From positions 5,069,266 to 5,133,265 of the forward strand of contig OY282444.1 in NCBI GenBank assembly GCA_958296125.1: DNA of 64,000 nt, written 5' to 3'. The DNA comes from an uncultured Poribacteria bacterium (GTDB lineage Bacteria > Poribacteria > WGA-4E > PCPOR2b). Below are positions 50,738 through 60,531 of this stretch, one piece after another; positions within the stretch are counted from its first letter, which is position 1; every line of letters begins with the position of its first letter. The notes under the pieces were generated by a model, which worked only from the letters and a program-made list of their open reading frames with translations, did not search any database and was not told the DNA's origin. Made by a program: the position numbers and the translations under genes.

Positions 50738-50786
50738 GACAAAATGACGCAGTAATGATAAAATGTATCCATAATGACATTTTGTC
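50738..50786. promoter_or_regulatory. inverted repeat upstream of groESL, candidate activator site
   Basis: GACAAAATG (50738-50746) and CATTTTGTC (50778-50786) are perfect complements about 31 bases apart. A second related piece, TGTCAATATGTCA, follows at 50800-50812. They lie 60-110 bases upstream of the sigma54 promoter, where enhancer-binding proteins usually bind. No CIRCE element (HrcA operator) was seen. Confidence 0.45.
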
Positions 50787-50843
50787 TCAGTTTTAAGTGT
50801 GTCAATATGTCATTGGTAGGCGAATAATCCAGTAATAGCGGGG

Positions 50844-50859
50844 TGGCATATCTATTGCA
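50844..50859 (+). promoter_or_regulatory. sigma54 (-24/-12) promoter of groES-groEL
   Basis: TGGCA at 50844-50848 and TTGCA at 50855-50859, with the key GG and GC pairs exactly 12 bases apart, match the sigma54 consensus TGGCAC-N5-TTGC at all but one position. Transcription would start near 50870, 43 bases before the groES ATG. Neither a sigma70-type pair nor a CIRCE element is visible in the same gap. Confidence 0.75.
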
Positions 50860-50912: not shown

Positions 50913-51203
50913 ATGGCACTCACGCCGTTAGGCGATCGGATTTTAATCCGACGCACTGAAGAAGATGAGCAGACAACCAGTGGAGGGATTATCATCCCTG
51001 ACACTGCCAAAGAGAAACCCCAAGAAGGGGAAGTTATCGCTGTTGGGAAAGGGCGCTTGCTTGACGATGGCGACCGGCAACCCATTGATGTCGCAGTTGG
51101 AGACAAAATCCTGTTTGGGAAATACTCCGGCACTGAAGTGACGTATGAGAACGAAGAGTTGTTGATTCTACGCGAAGATGACATCTTGGCAAAAATTGGC
51201 TAA
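50913..51203 (+). CDS. groES: co-chaperonin GroES
   Basis: GroES, 96 residues, forms the heptameric lid of the GroEL folding chamber. The sequence has the full family pattern: [12 protein letters not shown], the mobile loop [32 protein letters not shown] and [15 protein letters not shown]. The start follows AAGGAGACTGAGAT. groEL starts 33 bp downstream in the same operon, behind a sigma54 promoter. Confidence 0.98.
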
Positions 51204-51212
51204 TTTTGGTAG

Positions 51213-52871
<1,659 letters not shown>

Positions 52872-59253: not shown

Positions 59254-59943
59254 TTACGCCTTATCTGAATCGGTGCCGTTTCCAAGTTTTGCTTTCAGTG
59301 CGACAAGGTCATCGTCAACGCTGTCTTTCGTCTCTAACGCTGCGAACTCATCTTCGAGAGAATCCTTCTCAAAATCAGCCATTTCCGCGGCGGCATCCGC
59401 CCGTGCTTCCATATCACCGACCTTCTGCTCCATCCGATCGAAGGTGTCAAAGGCACTGCTATCTTTCATACCTGCCATCGTTTCATGGATCTGCTTTTGC
59501 GCTTTAGCTCGCCTCTGACGTGCAATCAGCAGATTCTTCTTACGACCGGCTTCCCCAATCTTTAGTTCCAGGGCTCTCAAATGTTCCTTGAGTTGGTCAA
59601 CAGCCTGTCGCTGTTTGTCCCACTGGATTTTGTATTCATCCGCGAGTTGTTGAGCCTCATTTCGCCGTGCTAGGGCTTCTCGCGCCAAGTCATCGCGTTC
59701 CTTCTGAACGGCGATGGTCGCTTTCTCTTCCCACTGCTTGGCTTGTCCGGCGGTTTCCTGATACTGTCTCTGAAGACGCTTTTCATCGGCAATCGCGGCA
59801 GCAACCTTCCGTTTCGTATCAACAAGCTGCTCGTTCATTTCAATGATAACTTGATTGAGAACCTTTTCCGGATCTTCCGCTTTGGTTAGCGCGTCATTCA
59901 CATTGGCTTTGAAGACTGTGGAGATTCGACTGAAGACACTCAT
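59254..59943 (-). CDS. pspA: phage shock protein A (PspA/IM30 family)
   Basis: Membrane-protecting coiled-coil protein, 229 residues from ATG 59943 (GAGGGATAT upstream). The start MSVFSRISTVFKANVNDALT and EDPEKVLNQVIIEMNEQLVD are diagnostic; the rest is almost all long helices with heptads, which assemble into ESCRT-III-like rods and rings on stressed inner membranes. The last 30 residues are acidic. A sigma54 promoter lies about 80 bases upstream, as in enteric bacteria where PspF controls the operon; no pspF, pspB or pspC gene is seen in this window. Confidence 0.93.
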   Translation of the reverse strand: MSVFSRISTVFKANVNDALTKAEDPEKVLNQVIIEMNEQLVDTKRKVAAAIADEKRLQRQYQETAGQAKQWEEKATIAVQKERDDLAREALARRNEAQQLADEYKIQWDKQRQAVDQLKEHLRALELKIGEAGRKKNLLIARQRRAKAQKQIHETMAGMKDSSAFDTFDRMEQKVGDMEARADAAAEMADFEKDSLEDEFAALETKDSVDDDLVALKAKLGNGTDSDKA

Positions 59944-60023
59944 TTTAATATCCCTCCGTATCACATAGACTGCGGTTTAAGTTGATTGAACCGTTGATCG
60001 GTTCGTGAAATCGCTTTCGATGA

Positions 60024-60039
60024 TGCAAGGGACTTGCCA
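60024..60039 (-). promoter_or_regulatory. sigma54 (-24/-12) promoter of pspA (minus strand)
   Basis: On the minus strand TGGCA (60039-60035) and TTGCA (60028-60024) have the GG and GC pairs exactly 12 bases apart: TGGCAAGTCCCTTGCA. Transcription would start near 60013, about 70 bases before the pspA ATG. The arrangement is the same as the one in front of groES. Confidence 0.72.
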
Positions 60040-60531
60040 TTCAGTCTTATCGGCACGATTATACCACAGCAGCTCACCCATGGCACCGTTGCTGCCTGAA
60101 TTTCAGGTAACAGGTATTATACAATCAAATCCCGCGCATGTAAAGGGCATCTTGATTGTGGCCCGGGGTATTTTGAATTTGGTGAACTCAACCTCCCGTT
60201 ATTGGAATTACTATTTTTTTCAGAGAAGGAGCAACATACTTCCCAAAGTGTTGAAAAACAGATGTTGGGTTCGTATCGATTGAGGCTCTCAAATTTGGGA
60301 TTCCGGATTATTTACCTCAAGCCATCTCATTGTTAGGTGAGACAACAATTTAAGGTTGATTTTTTAACTTTTTTGGCATATCATTTTTGGTAGGCGGCCC
60401 TTTGAATTTTATACTGAATAATTTTACTGGAAGCACCTAAAAATTCATAACGCATAAGAGTTACGCAGCTAAACGTTCAGTGCCCCCGATACGGAGATTG
60501 GGGTTCAAGTGCAAGATTATGGAGGCTAGAT
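60040..60531. other. 490-bp AT-rich intergenic region
   Basis: No gene is supported: the plus frame at 60005-60283 lacks a ribosome-binding site and family resemblance. The region must contain the enhancer sites for pspA and a promoter for the ankyrin gene. An ATTGTT...AACAAT hairpin at about 60331-60351 is followed by T-rich DNA. An ACGCAG motif near 60464 recalls the gap at 4136. Confidence 0.4.

What the first reader, a model, noticed from the sequence alone, without database searches (positions are those of the whole stretch)
60013..60039. pspA also has a sigma54 promoter, suggesting a shared sigma54 stress regulon
Seen: TGGCAAGTCCCTTGCA on the minus strand, exact 12-base spacing, about 80 bases before pspA. 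A check by eye of the other gaps found no further match, and the only two hits sit before two stress genes. Known: pspA is sigma54-dependent in enterics through PspF. Inference: envelope and folding stress are joined under sigma54 in this lineage.
Basis: partly seen in the sequence, partly recalled or inferred. Interest (0 to 1): 0.65.

Follow-up and report, generated by a model that had tools for sequence, protein, structure and literature searches.

The report
Conserved sigma54-type phage-shock promoters in Poribacteria
The site before this membrane-protection gene looks like a real, conserved switch of a specialised kind that marks most of the organism's phage-shock genes, while several protein-folding genes carry a related but distinct switch of the same broad class.

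Summary
TGGCAAGTCCCTTGCA lies at window 60024-60039 (-), 80 nt before pspA, in a Candidatus Poribacteria genome. By consensus alone it is weak: 4 window matches at >=10/11 against 3 for a reversed control. Conservation rescues it: 7 of 7 pspA orthologues keep it 60-81 nt before the start codon, while the sequence above it is about as alike as shuffled DNA.

It belongs to a distinct promoter class, YGGCAA-N4-CTTGYA. In the own genome the exact T-form occurs four times: before pspA, a PspA/PH/YqiJ-like/flotillin operon, a nuclease/PspA operon and an ECF sigma gene. Six genus genomes hold 22 sites, reversed control 0. Ordinary sigma54 sites stand before groESL (14 of 16 genomes), clpB (15 of 16), hsp20-degP and glnA.

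So envelope and folding stress genes both carry sigma54-type promoters. Shared control is not shown: the classes differ, no enhancer is shared, no PspF equivalog was found. A divergent RpoN-like paralogue occurs in 9 of 58 genomes, all with psp-class sites; it may be the dedicated factor. There are no expression data here. sigma54-driven psp and heat-shock genes are known elsewhere: a new variant of a known kind.

The parts
60024..60039 (-). sigma54-type -24/-12 site TGGCAAGTCCCTTGCA, psp class
   Evidence: exact spacing, kept in 7 of 7 orthologues; class recurs before PspA operons
59254..59943 (-). pspA (PspA/IM30 family, 229 aa), clade A
   Evidence: PF04012 E 2.5e-55; TIGR02977 176 bits, below its 243 cut-off
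59944..60023 (-). Conserved leader between site and pspA, with an inverted repeat GAACCG/CGGTTC at 59988-60004
   Evidence: pairwise identity 0.35-0.93 against 0.30 shuffled; repeat read by eye, not tested
60116..60144 (-). sigma70-like hexamers TTTACA-N17-TATAAT, 76 nt above the site; possible second promoter
   Evidence: 11 of 12 bases; comparable hexamers in 4 of 7 orthologues
50844..50859 (+). sigma54-type site TGGCATATCTATTGCA, generic class, 53 nt before groES
   Evidence: site of 10-11/11 before groES in 14 of 16 genomes
50775..50812 (+). Palindrome pair TGACATTTTGTC ... GTGTCAATATGTCA above the groESL site; enhancer or operator candidate
   Evidence: seen in family relatives; not at the other non-coding sites
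50913..51203 (+). groES
51237..52871 (+). groEL
   Evidence: PF00118 E 3.7e-77

Best explanation
The site is a sigma54-type (-24/-12) promoter of pspA. It belongs to a small membrane-stress regulon with its own promoter variant, YGGCAA-N4-CTTGYA. Shown: the site, its exact spacing, its conservation at promoter distance, and its recurrence before PspA-D/PH/YqiJ-like/flotillin, before nuclease/PspA-C and before an ECF sigma gene. Inferred: that a sigma54-type RNA polymerase starts transcription there under membrane stress, and that an activator or a dedicated RpoN-like factor supplies the signal. Chaperone genes (groESL, clpB, hsp20-degP) use the ordinary sigma54 class, so the two stress responses share a promoter type, not a demonstrated regulator.
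For: 7 of 7 pspA orthologues keep the site at 60-81 nt, with unconserved sequence above. 4 exact matches to TGGCAA-N4-CTTGYA in 5.16 Mb, 3 of them before PspA operons. 22 matches in six genus genomes against 0 reversed; 15 before PspA operons, 4 before the ECF gene, 3 in genes. D operon 10 of 10 loci, C operon 8 of 10. rpoN and activators present. Strict sigma54 pattern 55 against 17 control. E. coli pspA and pspG have the same frame with TTGTA.
Against: No transcript data. Position 6 is A and several sites have GT for GC, off the generic consensus. No conserved enhancer near the pspA site, no activator gene in the psp loci, no PspF equivalog among 4 scanned. sigma70-like hexamers lie above the site in 4 of 7 orthologues. 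G9 and G12 lack the site at the C operon.
Confidence: 0.72

Rival explanations
1. Refinement: the psp-class sites are read by the divergent RpoN-like paralogue (RpoN2), a second sigma54-type factor for membrane stress, while ordinary RpoN reads the TGGCAY...TTGCT class.
For: RpoN2 in 9 of 58 genomes, all nine with the D site. Class pattern 45 against 12 control in the 11 genomes of those two families, 76 against 94 in the other 47. Two site classes in one genome. Its RpoN box differs: ARRTVTYYRNKF against ARRTVAKYREEL.
Against: G5 has D and C sites but no RpoN2 found (it is a 95% complete MAG). The link follows family lines, so the Fisher value is not an independent test. No significant similarity to the sigma54 activator or core-binding domains.
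Confidence: 0.3
2. Ordinary RpoN reads both classes, and the psp class is tuned by an unlinked PspF-like activator acting from afar or from solution. This shares the main claim with the best explanation.
For: Full RpoN with all three domains; about 20 activators, several without a sensor domain. E. coli pspA and pspG use one RpoN with similar TTGTA sites (the PspF role from PMC9239133).
Against: No conserved upstream enhancer at pspA; class-specific bases in the core site are not expected from activator choice (inference).
Confidence: 0.42
3. The motif is an operator or leader element, not a promoter: it is nearly palindromic (GCAA-N5-TTGY), sigma70 drives pspA, and a regulator (perhaps RpoN2 as a plain DNA-binding protein) acts there.
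For: sigma70-like hexamers of >=10/12 above the site in 4 of 7. In G1, G5, G9 and G12 like motifs lie about 200-370 nt from pspA-type genes, above sigma70-like promoters.
Against: Exact -24/-12 spacing; constant distance to the start; G1, G2 and G7 lack a good sigma70-like site; likeness to E. coli psp promoters.
Confidence: 0.2
4. Chance match.
For: In the window 4 sites of >=10/11 against 3 reversed; 23 of 55 strict genome matches lie inside genes.
Against: 7 of 7 orthologues; 22 against 0 for the class in the genus.
Confidence: 0.03

Closest known systems
E. coli psp regulon (pspA operon and pspG; sigma54 with PspF)
   Same: PspA genes behind -24/-12 sites; both E. coli sites end in TTGTA like the D and C sites
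   Different: No pspF beside pspA, no PspF equivalog among 4 scanned; position 6 is A; three PspA paralogues, flotillin and an ECF sigma gene in the set
sigma54-linked heat-shock genes of Planctomycetota and Bacteroidota (PMC12316311, passages)
   Same: groESL and small heat-shock protein genes behind sigma54 sites
   Different: Here also clpB and hsp20-degP; dnaK has CIRCE; Poribacteria are not named in that paper's main text
PspA-flotillin-YqiJ/YuaF/NfeD operons (PMC11237479, PMC9239133, passages)
   Same: PspA with flotillin and a YqiJ-like membrane protein
   Different: A sigma54-type site heads the operon; the passages read give none
Multiple rpoN genes, as in Rhodobacter sphaeroides (PMC12316311, passage)
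   Same: Two sigma54-type genes in one genome
   Different: Here the second is recognisable by its DNA-binding domain only

Membership tests
sigma54-dependent promoter | GG and GC elements with 10 bases between, in a TGGCA...TTGC frame | tested here: met
   GC is GT in D and C sites
sigma54-dependent promoter | Place and conservation upstream of a gene | tested here: met
   7 of 7 orthologues, 60-81 nt
sigma54-dependent promoter | sigma54 gene in the genome | tested here: met
   AID, CBD and DBD
sigma54-dependent promoter | Enhancer for an activator | tested here: inconclusive
   None conserved within 120 nt above; farther or downstream sites not excluded
sigma54-dependent promoter | Transcription start and RpoN dependence | not testable with these tools
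   No expression data
PspF-controlled psp system | PspF equivalog | tested here: inconclusive
   4 of about 20 activators scanned; best TIGR02974 score 253 against a 443.55 cut-off
PspF-controlled psp system | pspF next to pspA | tested here: not met
   No activator gene in the 33 loci searched at E 1e-15
sigma54 factor (RpoN2) | DNA-binding domain with RpoN box | tested here: met
   PF04552 E 2.3e-23; ARRTV kept in 8 of 9, SRRTV in G9
sigma54 factor (RpoN2) | Activator-interacting and core-binding domains | tested here: inconclusive
   No Pfam AID or CBD listed at E<=10; one 22-residue non-significant match to the CBD part; structure model unusable. Not filed as a sigma factor

The most novel reading that the evidence does not exclude
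Two families of Poribacteria carry a dedicated, highly diverged sigma54-type factor that reads its own promoter code (YGGCAA-N4-CTTGYA) to run a membrane-stress regulon of three PspA paralogues, flotillin and an ECF sigma factor, possibly without an upstream enhancer, beside an ordinary sigma54 system that drives GroESL, ClpB and Hsp20-DegP.
Probability: 0.27. Interest if true: 0.75.

Novelty: new variant of a known kind. Interest (0 to 1): 0.52.

Why it matters
In the papers read, psp control by PspF is described only for Enterobacteriaceae; this gives a testable promoter code and regulon in an uncultivated phylum. If RpoN2 is the cognate factor, it is a natural split of sigma54 promoter specificity, and the missing enhancer would raise the question of activator-free sigma54 transcription. 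It also adds Poribacteria to the lineages where chaperone genes sit behind sigma54-type promoters.

Tried and rejected
PspF-like regulator: four short AAA+ activators scanned; none reaches the PspF cut-off. A two-gene candidate (DUF2089 helix-turn-helix protein plus an AAA+ protein without HTH and with a weak SHOCT-like N-terminus, E 0.0024) was attractive, but no DUF2089 match was found in G9 and G12, which have the D site, so it is unlikely to be the general psp activator.

Activator genes next to psp loci: none found by tblastn in 33 loci at E 1e-15.

Loose motif: with one mismatch the psp-class pattern is near control level (46 against 39), so only exact matches were used. 24 of those one-mismatch loci were classified; 18 lie inside genes.

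Shared palindrome GACA-N3-TGTC: among the 32 non-coding sites only groESL has it. RpoN2 upstream regions: no psp-class site seen in nine. RpoN2 structure: one job, mean pLDDT 44.6, not used further.

Literature: Poribacteria with sigma-54 gave 1 paper and Poribacteria with phage shock protein 2; listings only, none opened, none deals with this by title and abstract start. clpB, groESL, RpoN, heat shock and sigma-54-dependent together gave 0 papers. A search for Rhodobacter RpoN2 promoter specificity gave 0.

Full report
What was checked. The window is G000:C1:5069266-5133265 of a single-contig 5.16 Mb genome. Its nearest named relatives are Candidatus Poribacteria MAGs. The motif TGGCAAGTCCCTTGCA is at 60024-60039 on the minus strand, 80 nt before the ATG of a PspA/IM30 gene.

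Chance. The loose pattern is at chance in the window (42 against 33.9). On an 11-position consensus the site scores 10/11 because position 6 is A, and the window has 4 sites of that quality against 3 for the reversed consensus. The evidence from the window alone would therefore not have been enough. Genome-wide, TGGCA-N6-TTGCW has 55 exact matches against 17 for the reversed pattern. With a simple home-made gene caller, 28 of 55 lie at a promoter-like place, 23 inside genes and 4 elsewhere between genes.

Conservation at pspA. All 7 orthologues examined (own, G1, G2, G3, G4, G7, G8) have TGGCAA-N4-CTTGCA 60-81 nt before the start codon. Pairwise identity in the 120 nt above is 0.23-0.49 in 20 of 21 pairs (0.93 for G1-G2), against a mean of 0.34 for shuffled sequences; below the site it is 0.35-0.93 against 0.30. 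Conservation thus begins about at the site, which is the pattern of a promoter with its leader, and no conserved enhancer shows close above. sigma70-like hexamers above the site reach 10 or more of 12 in 4 of 7.

A psp promoter class. TGGCAA-N4-CTTGYA occurs exactly 4 times in the own genome: before pspA, before a PspA/bacterial PH/YqiJ-like/flotillin operon (4211594), before a bifunctional-nuclease/PspA operon (4207395), and 239 nt before an ECF sigma gene (4655772). The own genome has four PspA-family genes; three are behind such sites, and the fourth has a sigma70-type TTGGCA-N17-TATAAT (read by eye). In six genus genomes ATGGCAA-N4-CTTGYA has 22 matches, reversed control 0. By position 15 are before PspA operons (5 pspA-A, 6 D, 2 C, 2 B), 4 before the ECF gene and 3 inside genes. 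The D operon has the site in 10 of 10 loci and the C operon in 8 of 10, missing in G9 and G12. Against 26 generic promoter-like sites, the 29 psp-class sites differ at position 6 (A against C/T), 11 (C against mostly A) and 16 (A against mostly T). The search pattern fixed positions 6, 11 and 16 of the psp class and W at 16 of the generic class; the complete recovery in pspA and D orthologues is the less circular evidence. E. coli pspA and pspG, read from the K-12 record, have TGGCACGCAAATTGTA and TGGCATGATTCTTGTA; their TTGTA is shared with the D and C sites.

Folding stress. groESL has TGGCATATCTATTGCA 53 nt before groES. A site of 10 or 11 of 11 is before groES in 14 of 16 genomes; G11 and G14 lack it. 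clpB has a site of 10 or 11 of 11 in 15 of 16; G8 lacks it. Sites of 10 or more occur about 0.013 times per 200 nt of one strand in own-genome sequence. In the own genome an exact site is 71 nt before hsp20, followed on the same strand by a Do-family protease, and another is before glnA. Conservation of the last two was not tested. hrcA-grpE-dnaK has canonical CIRCE in G1, G5 and G6 and a degenerate form in the own genome. groESL has a palindrome pair above its site that other non-coding sites lack; it could be an enhancer or an operator.

Who reads the sites. The genome encodes a full RpoN and about 20 activators with the sigma54-interaction domain. A second gene, called RpoN2 here, has only a recognisable sigma54 DNA-binding domain. 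It is found in 9 of 58 genomes: G0-G4, G7, G8, G9, G12. All nine have the D site. G5 has D and C sites without it. G6 lacks it, and no D or C locus of G6 was among the places listed. In the 11 genomes of these two families YGGCAA-N4-CTTGTA has 45 matches against 12 control; in the other 47 it has 76 against 94. The psp loci of the 47 were not inspected one by one, except the PspA genes of G11 and G14, which showed no site. The association follows family lines and is a lead, not proof. The N-terminal part of RpoN2 shows no significant similarity to the other sigma54 domains and the predicted structure is not usable.

What is known. Passages read: PMC12316311 reports GroEL, GroES, IbpA, GrpE, DnaJ and DnaK genes enriched behind sigma54 promoters in Planctomycetota and Bacteroidota and lists PspA among associated genes. 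PMC9239133 and PMC11237479 describe PspA with flotillin, NfeD or YqiJ/YuaF partners, and PspF as a regulator hard to tie to the Psp response outside Enterobacteriaceae. None of the three mentions Poribacteria by the terms searched. PMC8762339 describes a tandem sigma66-sigma54 promoter at hrcA-grpE-dnaK in Chlamydia (passages).

Verdict. The confidences of the first two rivals overlap with the best explanation, since they are two ways in which it could work.

Noticed in passing
L184:9202-10463 (G000:C1:915202-916463): A DUF2089 helix-turn-helix gene is followed by a sigma54-activator-type AAA+ gene that keeps GAFTGA but lacks the HTH and has a weak SHOCT-like N-terminus: possibly a two-protein activator.
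   Followed up: partly
L353:6100-8232 (G000:C1:2872099-2874231): hsp20 and a Do-family protease gene (degP-like) lie on one strand behind a sigma54-type site, near a response-regulator activator gene.
   Followed up: partly
G000:C1:431899, 2233108 and 3752308: Three sigma54-type sites share a long similar upstream sequence, as if promoter modules had been copied.
   Followed up: no
L125 and L126 (G9, G12): Two CGGCAA...CTTGCA copies lie 218-367 nt above a pspA-type gene that has a sigma70-like promoter nearer the gene.
   Followed up: no
window 59988-60004: Inverted repeat GAACCG/CGGTTC in the pspA leader; G2 and G3 seem to have GACCC/GGGTC there, perhaps a leader hairpin with compensating changes (by eye).
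   Followed up: no
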